This document shows, piece by piece, positions 1-4,872 of a stretch of 64,000 nucleotides of DNA (position 1 is the stretch's first letter; each line of letters opens with the position of its first letter). Position numbers and translations under genes: made by a program. The stretch lies in the NCBI RefSeq assembly GCF_003206615.1, contig NZ_PZJW01000005.1, positions 124,001 to 188,000 on the forward strand, in the 5' to 3' direction. Origin of the DNA: Salinicola acroporae. GTDB taxonomy: Bacteria; Pseudomonadota; Gammaproteobacteria; Pseudomonadales; Halomonadaceae. The notes beneath the pieces are model-generated. The model saw only the letters and a program-made list of their open reading frames with translations, made no database searches and was not told where the DNA came from.

Positions 1-647
1 GGGTCCAGACGCGAGTGCACCAGCTGTCGGCTCAGTGCCGCGACCAGATTGGTCCCGTGCTCCCGCTCGATGAAAGCCATCATCAGATCGAGACTGGCCG
101 CGCCGCCGCCGCCCGTCAGACGCTGCCGATCGAACCGGTAGCGGGCGTCGCTCAGGGCGAGACCGGGGAACTCTTCCGCGAAGGCCGGTGCGCTCTCCCA
201 GTGGAGGGCCACTTCGAAGCCGTCGAGCAACCCGGCCCGAGCCAGAATGAACGCCCCCGTCTCCAGCGCCGCGAGTAGTCCGCCATGGGCCGCGACCTGG
301 CGCAACGCCGCCCAGTGCGACGAGGCCACCGTCGCTTCGGCCTCATACGAGGCCACGACGAACAGATTGTCGAAGATCGGCGTTCGCCCCAGCGCCGCGT
401 CGACATCGACGGTCACGCCGTTGCTGGCGGTCACCGGCCGACCATCGTTGGAAAACAGCCGCCACGCGAACAGCGGGCGGCCGAATCGATTGGCGACGCG
501 CAGCGGCTCGAGCAGACAATAAAGCGTCAGCATCGAGAACTTCGGCAGCAACCAGAGATTGACCGTGACATCAGCCTCCTCGGGCGACAGCACGGGCGGC
601 AGATCGGGGCGGGGATAGAGCCATTCCGGCGTCGAATGATCGGACAT
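1..647 (-). CDS. GlxA-family (DJ-1/PfpI + AraC) transcriptional regulator, 3' end outside window
   Basis: The visible 215 codons give the N-terminal DJ-1/PfpI-like sensor domain of the GlxA/CdhR/GbdR group. The motif LETGAFILARAGLLDG, followed by a His-Trp pair, is the family's nucleophile-elbow region; no Cys stands at the usual position, so it is a ligand-sensing and not an enzymatic domain. The C-terminal AraC helix-turn-helix must lie left of the window. Known relatives (CdhR, GbdR) sense carnitine or glycine betaine in Pseudomonas. It diverges from the oxygenase/HD/binding-protein genes at 743-3461, so it probably activates them in response to a trimethylammonium compound; this is inference from context. 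Start chosen at the ATG ending at 647. Confidence 0.85.
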   Translation of the reverse strand, partial: MSDHSTPEWLYPRPDLPPVLSPEEADVTVNLWLLPKFSMLTLYCLLEPLRVANRFGRPLFAWRLFSNDGRPVTASNGVTVDVDAALGRTPIFDNLFVVASYEAEATVASSHWAALRQVAAHGGLLAALETGAFILARAGLLDGFEVALHWESAPAFAEEFPGLALSDARYRFDRQRLTGGGGAASLDLMMAFIEREHGTNLVAALSRQLVHSRLD

Positions 648-742
648 GGCGAAAAGCGTCGCCGATACGGCCAAAAATATCAATTGCCTTCACGCGACAC
701 CGCCTAGGGTATCAGGACACTGATCCACCGAGAGATGTCGCC
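648..742. promoter_or_regulatory. Divergent promoter region of the regulator and the tmpA-like operon
   Basis: This 95-bp gap separates two divergent genes and must hold both promoters. It is locally AT-rich around 670-685. A small perfect inverted repeat (ATCAG, 4-nt spacer, CTGAT) lies at 711-724, about 20 bp before the oxygenase start codon. No -35/-10 pair is strong enough to name. A binding site for the GlxA-type regulator is expected here but is not proven by the sequence. Confidence 0.4.
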
Positions 743-1873
743 ATGGATGTTTTCGTCGAGATCATTCCCGGCAACCACGCTCGCCAGCTGAGAGTGGTCG
801 AGGGCAATCGGGAAACGCGCTTCCACGCGCTGTGGCTACGCGAGCGCTCCCCCGATGCGGAAACGCTCGATCCTCGCACCGGCCAGCGGCTGATCGAGGC
901 GGCCACCTTGCCGCTGGATCTGGCGCTGACCGACGCAGGCTGCGACGGCGAGACGGTCGATTTGACGTTCAGCGACGGACATCGTGCCCGTTTCACCTTG
1001 CGCGACTTGCATCCGGAACCGCCGGCCGGCGCCGTCCATGAGCACTGGGATGCGTCACTGGCGATCATGCCGAGTGCCGATTTCAGCCAGGCGCTGGAGC
1101 GCGACGATGCCCTGTCGGAGATGCTCGAGGCGCTCGAGCGCTACGGTTTCGTCAAGGTCGGCGGCGTGCCGCTGACGCGCGATGGCATGATGCCGCTGGT
1201 GGAGCGCCTGGGGCCGTTGCGCCGAACCAACTGGGGCGGCATCGCCGACGTCAAGTCGATCGCCGATGCCTTTGATCTGACCATGACGCAGCGCGGACTC
1301 GAACCGCACACCGATAACCCCTATCGCGACCCGATACCCGGCTATATCTGGCTGCACTGCCTGAGCAACGCCGACAGCGGCGGTGACAGCACTCTGACCG
1401 ATGGCTTCATGGCCGCGGAGCGCCTGCGCAAGGACGATCCCGACGCCTTCGACTGCTTGACCCGGACCTCGACACGATTTCGCTATGTCGACGATGACGC
1501 CCACCTGGAAAGCGAGGGCCCGCTGATCGAGCTCGACGCCCGTGGCAAGGTGATCCGGGTACGCTACAACAATCGCACCGAGCGCATCCCGCCGTTGCCG
1601 CCAGAGCAACTGGAGCGCTACTACGCGGCCCGGCGCGCCTTCTTCGCGCTGATCACGGCGCCGGAACTGACCCTGACGCCCAAGTTGGCACCCGGCGAGA
1701 TGCTGATCATGGACAACTACCGGCTGCTGCACGGACGCACTGCCTTCCAGCTCAGCCAGGGCGTTCGCCATCTGCGCCAGGGGTACGTCGATCGCGACAC
1801 CACCGCCAGCCGACGACTGACGTTGCGTCGCCAGGCCGGTGCCCCACTCCACTCGCTGCAGGAGTCCGCATGA
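743..1873 (+). CDS. tmpA: 2-oxoglutarate/Fe(II) oxygenase, TmpA-like (gamma-butyrobetaine hydroxylase family)
   Basis: 376 residues: an N-terminal DUF971-like domain (about 10-95) and a TauD/TfdA double-stranded beta-helix domain (about 110-365). The iron facial triad is visible as His189-x-Asp191 and distal His330 (LLHGR). Such proteins are usually named gamma-butyrobetaine hydroxylase. The 4-bp overlap with a PhnZ-like HD gene instead matches TmpA, which hydroxylates 2-(trimethylammonio)ethylphosphonate at C1. The N-terminal Cys-x-Cys-x2-Cys zinc ligands of carnitine-making enzymes are absent (residues 31-43 contain no Cys). The TmpA assignment rests on the gene pair; carnitine synthesis remains the alternative. 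ATG start with a GAGAG-type ribosome site. Confidence 0.72.
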   Translation: MDVFVEIIPGNHARQLRVVEGNRETRFHALWLRERSPDAETLDPRTGQRLIEAATLPLDLALTDAGCDGETVDLTFSDGHRARFTLRDLHPEPPAGAVHEHWDASLAIMPSADFSQALERDDALSEMLEALERYGFVKVGGVPLTRDGMMPLVERLGPLRRTNWGGIADVKSIADAFDLTMTQRGLEPHTDNPYRDPIPGYIWLHCLSNADSGGDSTLTDGFMAAERLRKDDPDAFDCLTRTSTRFRYVDDDAHLESEGPLIELDARGKVIRVRYNNRTERIPPLPPEQLERYYAARRAFFALITAPELTLTPKLAPGEMLIMDNYRLLHGRTAFQLSQGVRHLRQGYVDRDTTASRRLTLRRQAGAPLHSLQESA

Positions 1874-2448
1874 ACGCCACGTTTACCCGGTTCGATCATA
1901 GCCAGGCGGATGACTGGCAAGAGATCGACGCCCACTTTCGCGACTACCGCGAAGGCGTGGTCGAGCGTGTGATCGCGCATCTCCTGCGTCTCGAGGGCGA
2001 CACGCACGGCTACCCCGTCGACCGTTATACCCACTGCCTGCAGACGGCGACGCGCGCCGAGCGCGCCGGTGCCGACGAAGAGACCGTCGTCTGTGCCTTG
2101 CTTCACGATATCGGCGACGACCTGGCCCCGGACAACCACGCCGAGATCGCCGCCGCGATCCTGGAGCCGTTCGTCGACCCGCTGAACCTGTGGATGATCC
2201 GTCATCACGAGCTGTTCCAAGGCTATCATTACCGCCACTTCTACGGCCTGGACCGCCACGCCCGTGACGACTATCGCGATCACCCTGCCTACGCGCGCAC
2301 GGTCCGCTTCTGTGACGAATGGGACCAGACCTCGTTCGACCCCGACTACGACACGCTGACGCTCGCGCATTTCCGCCCGGCACTCGAACGGGTTCTGGGG
2401 CGTCCGCCGTTCGACGGCGCCGGGCTGCCAGAGGTCCGGGACGAATGA
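1870..2448 (+). CDS. tmpB: HD-domain mixed-valent diiron oxygenase, TmpB/PhnZ-like
   Basis: 192 residues, close in length to PhnZ. The HD-fold metal ligands are visible: His55, His79-Asp80, His90, the pair His112-His113, and Asp149. The stretch DRYTHCLQTATRAERAGADE followed by ALLHDIGDDLAP is typical of PhnZ/TmpB oxygenases, which cleave the C-P bond of an alpha-hydroxyphosphonate and are often misnamed phosphohydrolases. In the known pathway TmpB converts the TmpA product to glycine betaine and phosphate. Its ATG overlaps the upstream stop codon (ATGA), implying translational coupling. No phosphonatase or C-P lyase gene is nearby. Assignment is by motif and context; no activity can be read from sequence. 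Confidence 0.7.
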   Translation: MNATFTRFDHSQADDWQEIDAHFRDYREGVVERVIAHLLRLEGDTHGYPVDRYTHCLQTATRAERAGADEETVVCALLHDIGDDLAPDNHAEIAAAILEPFVDPLNLWMIRHHELFQGYHYRHFYGLDRHARDDYRDHPAYARTVRFCDEWDQTSFDPDYDTLTLAHFRPALERVLGRPPFDGAGLPEVRDE

Positions 2449-2504
2449 GCGGAGCCCGGCCCCGGAACCGGCACCCGACATTGACATAACAACGAGGAGT
2501 CATC

Positions 2505-3461
2505 ATGACACTACGCCCCGCACTCTTGGCCGCCAAGCTGCTGCCACTCTCGCTGATGACCGCATCGGTCGCGGCCTTCGCTCAAAGCCCGCAACCGGAC
2601 GAGGCCGAGAGCGTCAATTTCGTCGTCCCCCCCTGGCCCGGGGTCACGGTCAAGACCGAGGTCTTCAGCCAACTGATCGAACCGCTCGGCTATGACAGCG
2701 AGACCCAGGAGGTCAGCAGCACGGTCGGCTACCAGACGCTGCAGACCGGTGACAGTGACGTGTTCCTGGCCGGCTGGATGCCGGCCCAGCAGGAGAGCCA
2801 CGATCAGGCGATGGCCAGCGGCAAGATCGAGGATCTCGGCACCAACGTCACCGGTGCGAGGATGGGCTTCGCGGTGCCCGGTTACGTCTACGACGCCGGC
2901 ATTCACAGCGCCGAGGACCTGGCTGCGCATCGCGACCGGTTCGGCGGTCGTTTCTACTCGATCGAGTCCGGCTCGACGGTCAGCACGTTCATCCACGACG
3001 CCCAGGACCGAGACCTCTACGGGCTGGGCGACTGGCAGATTCTCGAATCCTCGACGCCGGGCATGCTGTCGGAGGTCGATACCGCGTTCAACGACAAGCG
3101 CTGGATCGTCTGGTACGGCTGGACCCCGCACTGGATGGCGCCGGCCTACGACATGCACATTCTCGACGACCCGGAGTCGGTCTACGGCCCCGACAACGGC
3201 AAGAGCGAGGTTCGAACCATCGTCAACAAGGCGTTCGCCGAGGCCAACCCCAACCTGATGGCACTGCTCGGGCAGTTCACCCTGACCGCCGACGAGCAGA
3301 GCGAATTCATCGACGGCTATGGCCGCCAGGAACGCTCGGCCGAGGCGGTCGCCCGGGAGTGGTTGCAGGATCACCCCGACCGCGTTGCCGAGTTCCTCGA
3401 TGGCATCACCACCCGCGACGGCCGACCGGCACTCGACGCGGTAAAAGCCAGCCTGCAGTAA
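2505..3461 (+). CDS. Periplasmic glycine betaine/choline-type ABC substrate-binding protein
   Basis: 318 residues with a Sec signal peptide (cleavage near residue 26, after AFAQ). The mature part is an OpuAC/ProX-type binding protein. Trp residues in PPWPG, LAGWMP and WYGWTPHWM are the sort that build the aromatic cage around a quaternary ammonium group. It follows the tmpB-like gene by 56 bp with a strong AACGAGGAG ribosome site, so it is very likely in the same transcript. No ATPase or permease gene is adjacent, so it must use a transporter core encoded elsewhere. Likely ligand: a trimethylammonium compound such as the TmpA substrate, carnitine or betaine. Confidence 0.85.
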   Translation: MTLRPALLAAKLLPLSLMTASVAAFAQSPQPDEAESVNFVVPPWPGVTVKTEVFSQLIEPLGYDSETQEVSSTVGYQTLQTGDSDVFLAGWMPAQQESHDQAMASGKIEDLGTNVTGARMGFAVPGYVYDAGIHSAEDLAAHRDRFGGRFYSIESGSTVSTFIHDAQDRDLYGLGDWQILESSTPGMLSEVDTAFNDKRWIVWYGWTPHWMAPAYDMHILDDPESVYGPDNGKSEVRTIVNKAFAEANPNLMALLGQFTLTADEQSEFIDGYGRQERSAEAVAREWLQDHPDRVAEFLDGITTRDGRPALDAVKASLQ

Positions 3462-3621: not shown

Positions 3622-4872
3622 ATGCGTTCAACCGATCCACACTCCCCGTCGCCCCGCTTTGCCCAATTGACCCGACGCATCGCCGGCGAGGGCGCCAGCG
3701 CCTGGAACATCCACTTCCGTGCCAAGGCACGCCAGGCCCGAGGCGACGACGTGATCGTCCTCTCGGTGGGCGATCCCGATTTCGACACCCCGCCCTCGAT
3801 CGTCGATGCCGCTGTCGACAGTCTGCGGCGCGGCGTGACCCATTACGCCGACGTTCAGGGCAAGCCGGTCCTGCGCGAGCGCATCGCGGCCTTTCATCGC
3901 GCCCATGGCGGCCAGCCCGGGACGAGCGCGGACCACGTCGCCGTTCTCGCCGGCGCACAGTGCGGTCTCTACGCCACGGCGCAGTGCCTGCTCGATCCAG
4001 GCAACGAGGTGATCATCCCCGAACCGGCCTACGTCACCTACGAGGCGGTAGTACAGTCCACCGGCGCGGTGCCGGTGTGGGTCCCGCTGCCGGCCGACGA
4101 AGGCTTCCAGCCCCGATCGGCCGACATCGAGGCGGCGATCACCTCCCGCACCAAGGCGATCCTGATCAACAGCCCGCACAACCCAACCGGCCAGTGCCTG
4201 ACACCGGCGCTGTGGCAATCGATCGCCACGCTCTGCCGCGATCACGACCTGTGGCTGATCGTCGATGCCGTCTACGCCGACCTGGTCTTCGACGGCGAGC
4301 ACCTTAGCCCCGACAGCCTGCCGGACATGGCAGAGCGCACCGTGGTGATCAGCAGCCTGTCGAAATCCCACGCCATGACCGGCTGGCGGCTCGGCTGGGT
4401 CATCGGTCCGCGGCCCCTGATGACCCATCTGGTCAACCTCGCCCTGTGCATGCTCTATGGCTGCCAGCCGTTCATCCAGGACGCGGCCATCGCCGCCCTC
4501 GACGCACCGCCAGCAGCGCTGGAGGCGATGCGCGAGACCTATCGTCAGCGCCGCGATGCGGTGGTCGAGACCCTGCACGACAGCGAGACCGTCGCCACCC
4601 TGCCGCCCGCCGCCGGGATGTTCATGATGATCGACATTCGCGCGACCGGACTCAGCACCCACGCCTTCGCCGACCGCCTGCTCGACGAGCATGGCGTATC
4701 GGTGCTCGCAGGCGAGGCGTTCGGCGCTTCCGCCGCGGGCTTCGTGCGGCTGAGCCTGACCGTGGATGCCGACCGCCTGCGCGAGGCATGTCGGCGAATC
4801 GAGCGCTGCGCCCAGGAGTGCCAGGGCGAGTCCCGACTGGCGGCCCGACCGCTCAACGGCATGACAAGCTGA
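3622..4872 (+). CDS. PLP-dependent class I/II aminotransferase, AruH (arginine:pyruvate transaminase)-like
   Basis: 416 residues, fold-type I aminotransferase. The PLP lysine is Lys248 in [15 protein letters not shown]; the N-terminal region has [11 protein letters not shown], and SPHNPTG supplies the cofactor Asn. As I recall it, the whole length resembles Pseudomonas AruH, including [15 protein letters not shown] and [12 protein letters not shown]. AruH moves the alpha-amino group of arginine to pyruvate, giving 2-ketoarginine and alanine. The downstream aru genes for 2-ketoarginine are not in the window, so the substrate is not certain. The next gene, argC, starts 62 bp later on the same strand. 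Confidence 0.8.

What the first reader, a model, noticed from the sequence alone, without database searches (positions are those of the whole stretch)
743..3461. Probable trimethylammonium-phosphonate (TmpA/TmpB) pathway with its own binding protein and regulator
A BBOX-like oxygenase (His189, Asp191, His330) overlaps by 4 bp an HD gene with PhnZ-type ligands (His55, His79-Asp80, His112/113, Asp149). Both members are usually misnamed (carnitine hydroxylase, phosphohydrolase). The known TmpA/TmpB pair makes glycine betaine plus phosphate from 2-(trimethylammonio)ethylphosphonate. Here the pair is joined to a betaine-type binding protein and a divergent GlxA regulator, which would link phosphorus scavenging to osmolyte supply in a halophile.
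Basis: partly seen in the sequence, partly recalled or inferred. Interest (0 to 1): 0.75.

Follow-up and report, generated by a model that had tools for sequence, protein, structure and literature searches.

The report
Sister pair to TmpA and TmpB
Two neighbouring genes in a salt-loving bacterium look like a known pair of phosphonate-degrading iron enzymes but belong to a separate lineage with a differently built active site, found beside arginine- and carnitine-degrading genes, so they probably break down another compound.

Summary
The gene pair is real and lies where stated (a Salinicola genome), but the TmpA/TmpB reading is only partly right. The oxygenase (743-1873) is nearest to TmpA among characterised enzymes, yet falls in a supported sister clade (100/99) whose adjacent HD genes, in the loci classified, are never TmpB but another HD family. 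It keeps TmpA's Arg288 but has Asp for the phosphonate-binding Asn187 (23 of 23 clade II, 0 of 26 TmpA-clade rows) and has lost two cage aromatics. The HD protein (1870-2448) keeps six diiron-type ligands (the last Asp152, not Asp149) but lacks the PhnZ/TmpB pocket residues (YxxE 0, His62 0, Lys108 0, Arg158 4 of 88 relatives) and scores 40.7 bits against a TmpB cut-off of 300. In 40 further Halomonadaceae loci the pair sits with a 2-ketoarginine decarboxylase (33), an aminotransferase (33), a betaine-type binding protein (31) and a divergent GbdR-type regulator (37). Here it abuts carnitine-catabolism genes. Best reading: a hydroxylase plus diiron-oxygenase module cutting a C-C bond of a cationic carboxylate, not the C-P bond of trimethylammonium-phosphonate. 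The substrate is inferred, not shown.

The parts
743..1873 (+). Fe(II)/2-oxoglutarate oxygenase, TmpA sister clade ('clade IIb'); Fe ligands H189, D191, H330; R278 (= TmpA R288) and N277 (= N287) kept; D178 (for TmpA N187), A168 (for F177) and M181 (for Y190) changed
1870..2448 (+). HD-domain protein of a family distinct from TmpB/PhnZ; six diiron-type ligands H55, H79, D80, H90, H113, D152; YxxE loop, H62, K108, R158 and S126/T129 equivalents absent; predicted fold closest to TmpB and PhnZ
1870..1873 (+). 4-base stop/start overlap (ATGA) between the two genes
   Evidence: same overlap in 35 of 40 further Halomonadaceae loci by mechanical start calling, earlier HD starts in the other 5
2505..3461 (+). 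OpuAC-family periplasmic substrate-binding protein, ChoX/CaiX-like, below the ChoX cut-off (269.3 against 379 bits); no permease or ATPase gene beside it in the gene list
3..683 (-). divergent GATase1-AraC regulator (GbdR/CdhR type), cut by the window start; whole gene L024 13628-14683
   Evidence: divergent in 37 of 40 further loci
3622..4872 (+). PLP aminotransferase, kept downstream on the same strand in 33 of 40 further Halomonadaceae loci; AruH-like by recollection, no NCBIfam model over its cut-off (best GntC, 292.5 against 415)

Best explanation
A two-step oxidative module, sister to TmpA/TmpB, that acts on a carboxylate rather than a phosphonate. Step 1: the Fe/2OG enzyme hydroxylates a carbon close to the acid group of a cationic carboxylate. 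Step 2: the HD protein, as a diiron oxygenase, chelates the new hydroxy-acid and cuts the adjacent C-C bond with O2, giving a shorter cationic acid. The substrate most likely belongs to the arginine/guanidino or trimethylammonio (trimethyllysine, valerobetaine, butyrobetaine) acids taken up and processed by the surrounding operon, and the product feeds the carnitine/betaine or arginine routes. Shown: sequences, clades, partner rule in the loci classified, conserved metal-ligand set, loss of phosphonate-type residues, operon context. Inferred: oxygenase activity of this HD family, C-C rather than C-P cleavage, and the substrate class.
For: Partner rule: in the loci classified, each TmpA-clade oxygenase with an HD gene adjacent has a TmpB/PhnZ-type one, and each sister-clade oxygenase with an HD gene adjacent has a P0002-type one. 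Residues: Asn187 is Asp in 23 of 23 clade II and 0 of 26 clade I rows; two cage aromatics lost in 16 of 16 rows of the window's subclade (role of N187, N287 and R288 from PMC9296572). HD family: metal ligands 88 of 88; E27 0, H62 0, K108 0, R158 4, Y24 7 of 88, S126/T129 segment absent in 88 of 88, versus 39 of 39 in TmpB/PhnZ types for Y24, E27, H62, K108 and R158. Fold: AF2 model mean pLDDT 90, the ten Foldseek hits with E under 0.001 are all TmpB or PhnZ. Context in 40 further loci: divergent regulator 37, 2-ketoarginine decarboxylase 33, aminotransferase 33, betaine-type SBP 31, BBOX-type gene 23 (decarboxylase of L012 752 bits over a cut-off of 500); HisJQMP-type transporter genes in 28-36 of 47 loci. 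A P. aeruginosa plasmid keeps the order oxygenase-HD-ChoX-choline dehydrogenase-ALDH.
Against: Arg288, Asn287 and the NPYR motif of TmpA are kept in the window protein, which would suit a phosphonate. The oxygenase passes NCBIfam's TmpA cut-off. The HD family occurs mostly without a TmpA-like gene within 1.5 kb (27 of 29 loci), the paired HD genes fall in three places of the HD tree among solo ones, and 6 of 15 genomes with a TmpA-clade gene also carry a P0002-type HD gene, so its activity may be general and is unknown; it may be a hydrolase: R52, three residues before H55, is invariant in 13 sequences, and the phosphatases of the superfamily have an Arg before the first His (PMC8177086). Seven of 22 clade II rows have no adjacent HD gene. 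The arginine and carnitine neighbours point to different substrates, and neither gives a direct reason for this chemistry. In one order of another class the co-occurrence of oxygenase and HD gene is weak (10 of 10 versus 35 of 51, Fisher p 0.05).
Confidence: 0.5

Rival explanations
1. One reading: the oxygenase still makes (R)-1-hydroxy-TMAEP and this other HD family cleaves its C-P bond to glycine betaine and phosphate.
For: Nearest characterised relative is TmpA; R288, N287 and NPYR kept; a sister-clade pair in one genome (L167) lies near what by eye look like betaine-demethylation genes (names recalled); betaine-type binding protein.
Against: N187 to Asp and cage loss; PhnZ/TmpB pocket residues missing from the HD family; no phosphonate-uptake gene among the neighbours named or read; arginine/carnitine context.
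Confidence: 0.2
2. The HD protein is a phosphohydrolase or other hydrolase, not an oxygenase, so there is no two-step oxidative cleavage; the oxygenase works alone on an arginine- or betaine-type compound.
For: Arg52 before the first ligand His resembles the Arg of HD phosphatases (PMC8177086 passages); the family is usually found without a TmpA-like gene (27 of 29 loci).
Against: Six-ligand diiron-type set and a predicted fold closest to the oxygenases TmpB and PhnZ, not to hydrolases; overlap with an oxygenase gene in Halomonadaceae and pairing in several distant lineages.
Confidence: 0.15
3. The oxygenase is a second gamma-butyrobetaine hydroxylase or other enzyme of the carnitine route and the HD gene is a passenger.
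For: Adjacent carnitine dehydrogenase, BKACE-family gene, thioesterase and GbdR/CdhR-type regulators; a relative without adjacent HD gene (L158) is divergent from the same set of carnitine-type genes.
Against: A BBOX-clade gene already sits in the cluster; TmpA-type R288, absent from 24 of 24 BBOX-type rows; HD adjacent in 40 of 40 further loci.
Confidence: 0.08

Closest known systems
TmpA/TmpB (Leisingera caerulea; PDB 6NPB-6NPD, 6NPA)
   Same: two overlapping genes, Fe/2OG oxygenase then HD protein; oxygenase sister to TmpA; six diiron ligands and predicted fold of the HD protein
   Different: separate oxygenase clade with Asp for Asn187 and, in the window's subclade, lost cage aromatics; HD protein of another family without YxxE, His62, Lys and Arg equivalents; other operon context
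PhnY/PhnZ (2-aminoethylphosphonate)
   Same: hydroxylase plus HD diiron oxygenase logic; HD fold
   Different: same missing pocket residues as for TmpB; PhnY itself was not compared
myo-inositol oxygenase (MIOX)
   Same: HD diiron oxygenase that cuts a C-C bond and has no YxxE loop (PMC8177086, passages)
   Different: only a weak structural match (2huo E 0.31, TM 0.51/0.40); no MIOX among the sequence matches
gamma-butyrobetaine hydroxylase (BBOX) and the Pseudomonas carnitine operon caiX-cdhCAB-hocS with divergent cdhR
   Same: oxygenase superfamily; next to a carnitine dehydrogenase, a BKACE-family gene, a thioesterase, GbdR/CdhR-type regulators and an OpuAC-type binding protein (PMC5806209, passages)
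   Different: oxygenase outside the BBOX clade and below its cut-off; the P. aeruginosa operon, in the passages seen, has no TmpA-like/HD pair
Arginine transaminase pathway (AruH, AruI)
   Same: 2-ketoarginine decarboxylase over its NCBIfam cut-off (one member scored) and an aminotransferase in the same run of genes in most of the 40 loci
   Different: the oxygenase and HD genes are not known steps of that pathway (recalled); the window's genome carries its decarboxylase on another contig

Membership tests
TmpA (NF049936) | score over curated cut-off 400 | tested here: met
   428 bits; but the 13 members next to an over-cut-off TmpB score 537-593
TmpA (NF049936) | Fe(II) facial triad HxD...H | tested here: met
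   H189, D191, H330
TmpA (NF049936) | falls in the clade of characterised TmpA | tested here: not met
   sister clade, supports 100/99 and 99/95
TmpA (NF049936) | phosphonate ligands N187, N287, R288 | tested here: not met
   N187 is D178; N287 and R288 are kept as N277 and R278 (roles from PMC9296572)
TmpA (NF049936) | aromatic cage residues F177 and Y190 (BBOX W181, Y194; cage role recalled) | tested here: not met
   A168 and M181
TmpA (NF049936) | hydroxylates TMAEP | not testable with these tools
   needs purified enzyme
TmpB / PhnZ | score over curated cut-off | tested here: not met
   TmpB 40.7 against 300; Phn-HD 43.5 against 214.6
TmpB / PhnZ | six-ligand H...HD...H...H...D diiron motif | tested here: met
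   H55, H79, D80, H90, H113, D152; 88 of 88 family sequences; metal binding itself not tested
TmpB / PhnZ | YxxE substrate-gating loop | tested here: not met
   T45 and Y48 in the window protein; E in 0 of 88, Y in 7 of 88 family sequences, both 39 of 39 in TmpB/PhnZ types
TmpB / PhnZ | His62, Lys108, Arg158 (PhnZ numbering; substrate role recalled) | tested here: not met
   D83, Q117, D149
TmpB / PhnZ | HD oxygenase fold | tested here: met
   predicted model; Foldseek E 1.3e-5 to 9.8e-5, TM 0.61-0.72 over the ten TmpB/PhnZ hits
gamma-butyrobetaine hydroxylase (TIGR02409) | score over cut-off 414.75 and BBOX-clade placement | tested here: not met
   264.7 bits; outside the BBOX-like clade
myo-inositol oxygenase | MIOX sequence or close structure | tested here: not met
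   2huo E 0.31; no MIOX among sequence matches
ChoX choline-binding protein (TIGR03414), for the third gene | score over cut-off 379 | tested here: not met
   269.3 bits

The most novel reading that the evidence does not exclude
The pair is a chain-shortening (alpha-oxidation) machine for cationic carboxylates: the oxygenase puts a hydroxyl next to the carboxylate, the HD diiron oxygenase removes that carboxylate as CO2 and leaves an acid one carbon shorter. The window's subclade, with its opened cage, would act on a longer acid such as 4-guanidinobutyrate or delta-valerobetaine (giving gamma-butyrobetaine for the neighbouring BBOX). The other subclade, with an intact cage and, in one plasmid, a choline-dehydrogenase/ALDH run, would act on beta-alanine betaine, the carboxylate look-alike of TMAEP, giving glycine betaine. 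This would be an HD oxygenase family that cuts C-C bonds of hydroxy-acids.
Probability: 0.18. Interest if true: 0.82.

Novelty: new variant of a known kind. Interest (0 to 1): 0.58.

Why it matters
Public annotation would name this oxygenase TmpA (it passes the NCBIfam cut-off), and so would credit such genomes with a phosphonate route they may not have. If the reading is right, a widespread HD family (59 of 398 Pseudomonadota genomes) is a new group of candidate diiron oxygenases with a constant and different active site, and its gene pairs give a directly testable enzyme system linking arginine, quaternary-ammonium and carnitine metabolism in halophiles.

Tried and rejected
Rejected: a plain TmpA/TmpB assignment; a BBOX assignment; MIOX membership. 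Weak: genome-level co-occurrence of the two genes outside Halomonadaceae, because the HD gene is common there (45 of 61 genomes of one order). All 12 clade II genomes checked do carry the HD gene somewhere, but so do 6 of 15 genomes with a TmpA-clade gene. Led nowhere: contexts of HD genes (29 loci with 1.5 kb flanks; five plasmid stretches) gave no constant neighbour, though a class II aldolase recurs (L026 and L224 beside the HD gene, L225 about 4 kb away). The aminotransferase had no curated name over cut-off, its solved relatives are general aspartate-type enzymes, and two annotated plasmid neighbourhoods of 20 records found showed no decarboxylase beside it; one had amine/amino-acid-type ABC transporter genes. 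The listings of paper searches showed no description of this oxygenase/HD pairing in the held library; this is not proof that none exists. The original TmpA/TmpB paper is not held, so its content is from recollection and from PMC8177086, PMC10574752 and PMC9296572 (passages only).

Rows dropped or altered: before the oxygenase tree I left out the rows of twelve near-identical or duplicate loci and set eleven partner labels by hand where mechanical ORF starts had hidden the neighbour. Two of the seven clade II rows labelled as having no HD neighbour (L140, L142) lie within about 0.6 kb of a contig end on the downstream side, so a neighbour could have been missed; for a third (L146) an HD gene lies about 2.6 kb away. 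Before the HD tree I left out nine loci and kept every fifth TmpB-type row. Of 25 plasmid records with an oxygenase match I read six. The 40 loci are 40 of the 74 non-Salinicola matches of 460 bits or more listed (my count). The 48 loci include at least four records fetched twice (L254/L015, L251/L016, L247/L017, L273/L018, judged by equal contig lengths), so I quote the 40 new ones, recounted; two of these (L267, L268) are from one genome.
Full report
What is there. The window lies on a contig of a Salinicola genome: the tool places it at G000:C28:124001-188000, and the nearest named relatives of the HD protein are ten Salinicola loci, 96 to 82 percent identical. ORF 743-1873 and ORF 1870-2448 overlap by ATGA, and ORF 2505-3461 follows after 56 bases. 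A GATase1-AraC regulator is divergent at 3-683, cut by the window start. An aminotransferase follows at 3622-4872.

The oxygenase. The closest solved structure by sequence is TmpA (223 bits) ahead of human BBOX (158). NCBIfam gives TmpA 428 bits (cut-off 400) and BBOX 264.7 (cut-off 414.75). In 398 Pseudomonadota genomes, 16 have a match over the TmpA cut-off: 13 at 537-593 bits, each with a TmpB over its own cut-off next to it, one at 470 bits with an HD gene at 168 bits beside it, and the two Salinicola genomes at 428 and 423. A maximum-likelihood tree of 68 sequences shows three groups: BBOX-like (22 rows, 98/96), TmpA clade I (22 rows, 99/95, includes 6NPB) and its sister clade II (22 rows, 100/99), which holds the window protein. 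Two long-branched rows, human BBOX (the outgroup) and L135, lie outside.

The partner rule. Clade I rows with an adjacent HD gene have a TmpB/PhnZ-type one (one row, L153, had none found). Clade II rows have either a P0002-type HD gene adjacent (15 of 22) or no HD gene found adjacent (7, of which two lie at contig ends). No row crosses over. The genomes of those 7 all carry a P0002-type HD gene elsewhere. Six oxygenases from plasmids, added afterwards, agree: three with TmpB in clade I, one actinobacterial sequence with a TmpB-like partner at the base of clade I (support 87), one in clade II with a P0002-type HD gene, and one BBOX-like without partner. Pairs of clade II type occur outside Halomonadaceae in L071, L078, L144, L145, L151 and L222.

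The oxygenase pocket. PMC9296572 (passages) states that TmpA binds the phosphonate through N187, N287 and R288. On an alignment of 73 rows, position 187 is Asn in 26 of 26 clade I rows and Asp in 23 of 23 clade II rows. R288 is Arg in all 49 of these and in 0 of 24 BBOX-type rows. The cage position F177 (BBOX W181) is aromatic in 26 of 26 clade I and 7 of 7 clade IIa rows, but Ala, Glu or Thr in 16 of 16 clade IIb rows, among them the window protein. Y190 (BBOX Y194) is Tyr or Phe in clades I and IIa, and Met, Leu or Val in 16 of 16 clade IIb rows. The cage role of these residues is recalled from BBOX structures; the paper's numbering is taken as chain position minus 6, which fits N287, R288 and N187. 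In the window protein the residues are D178, R278, A168 and M181.

The HD protein. It scores 40.7 bits on the TmpB model (cut-off 300) and 43.5 on the Phn-HD model (cut-off 214.6). An AlphaFold model (13 sequences, mean pLDDT 90) matches TmpB and PhnZ best (E 1.3e-5 to 9.8e-5, TM 0.61-0.72); MIOX comes far behind (E 0.31). In an alignment of 88 non-identical members of this family and 39 of TmpB/PhnZ type, the six metal ligands are invariant in both groups. The pocket is not shared: PhnZ E27 is E in 39 of 39 against 0 of 88 (Tyr or Phe instead), H62 is Asp in 88 of 88, K108 is Gln in 88 of 88, R158 is Arg in 4 of 88, and the segment with S126 and T129 is missing in 88 of 88. Y24 is Tyr in 39 of 39 against 7 of 88. 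The YxxE loop is described in PMC8177086 (passages); the roles of H62, K108 and R158 are recalled. The family is separated from TmpB/PhnZ by a branch of length 3.73 with support 100/100. Within it the paired HD genes fall in three places among solo ones, so pairing was gained or lost more than once. The family is common, in 59 of 398 Pseudomonadota genomes, and usually without a TmpA-like gene within 1.5 kb: 27 of 29 loci inspected.

Context in the window's genome. Immediately upstream on the contig (L024) lie a BKACE-family gene (272 bits on 3-keto-5-aminohexanoate cleavage enzyme, cut-off 382), an L-carnitine dehydrogenase over its cut-off (419 against 414 bits), a thioesterase that matches the C-terminal part of carnitine 3-dehydrogenase, a BBOX-type oxygenase (303 bits, below the 414.75 cut-off) and a second GbdR-type regulator. 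BKACE and thioesterase are read as CdhC- and CdhB-like from the Pseudomonas operon described in PMC5806209 (passages). No TmpB is found in the genome; C-P lyase PhnJ is present on another contig.

Context in relatives. P0001 relatives were found in 132 of 201 Halomonadaceae genomes, BBOX-type ones included. Around the clade II gene I fetched 40 further loci, 40 of the 74 non-Salinicola matches of 460 bits or more. Counts: HD 40, divergent regulator 37, 2-ketoarginine decarboxylase 33 (one partial), aminotransferase 33, OpuAC-type binding protein 31, BBOX-type oxygenase 23, class II aldolase 12, carnitine dehydrogenase, BKACE and thioesterase 11 each. The names rest on phmmer similarity to one reference each. 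The decarboxylase of L012 scores 752 bits on the 5-guanidino-2-oxopentanoate decarboxylase model (cut-off 500). Downstream, genes of a HisJQMP-type amino-acid transporter recur in 28-36 of 47 loci; the binding protein of L012 is nearest to the lysine/arginine/ornithine type, below cut-off (216 against 256). Salinicola keeps its decarboxylase elsewhere (748 bits), beside an agmatinase-family gene and an ALDH. On plasmid pF045_1 of P. aeruginosa the order is oxygenase, HD, ChoX (458 bits, over its cut-off), choline dehydrogenase, ALDH.

Reading. TmpA kinship, the HD fold and the overlap make a two-step hydroxylate-then-cleave module likely. The loss of the phosphonate-type pocket in the HD family, the Asn-to-Asp change, the opened cage and the arginine/carnitine neighbours argue that the scissile bond is C-C in a cationic carboxylate. 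I put this at 0.5, the phosphonate reading at 0.2 and a hydrolytic HD protein at 0.15. The exact substrate is open: guanidino and trimethylammonio acids are both compatible with the neighbours.

Limits. I saw no activity data for any clade II member in the listings of the held library (searches named under Tried and rejected). AruH as a name for the aminotransferase is recalled. Identification of betaine-demethylation genes near L167 is by eye. Pair counts are not corrected for kinship.

Noticed in passing
window 743-1873 and L069: The NCBIfam TmpA equivalog cut-off (400 bits) admits the two Salinicola clade II proteins (428 and 423 bits), although the 13 members next to an over-cut-off TmpB score 537 or more.
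   Followed up: yes
L114-L117 (same genes as L060-L063): The BBOX equivalog TIGR02409 scores four TmpB-linked oxygenases over its cut-off (513-523 bits), so TmpA proteins of that group could be named gamma-butyrobetaine dioxygenase.
   Followed up: partly
L222 7082-16814 (plasmid pF045_1, P. aeruginosa): Clade II oxygenase, HD, ChoX, choline dehydrogenase and ALDH in one run, with an 837-residue CoA-transferase and a LysR gene just upstream.
   Followed up: partly
L026 681-1463, L224 5052-5849, L225 2240-3007, L021 11653-12432: A class II aldolase/adducin-family gene recurs near P0002-type HD genes, with or without the oxygenase.
   Followed up: partly
L229 5923-7601 (Embleya plasmid): An actinobacterial TmpA-like gene with a TmpB-like HD gene (163 bits to a TmpB query) sits at the base of the TmpA clade.
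   Followed up: no
L127 (G000:C12:374980-376062): The window's genome has a third TmpA/BBOX-family gene, BBOX-like, followed by another OpuAC-type binding protein.
   Followed up: no
G000:C23:272279-273091 (L233): The genome encodes C-P lyase PhnJ, so it may use phosphonates by a different route.
   Followed up: no
L153 (G452): A clade I oxygenase with no TmpB-type gene detected within the fetched flank.
   Followed up: no
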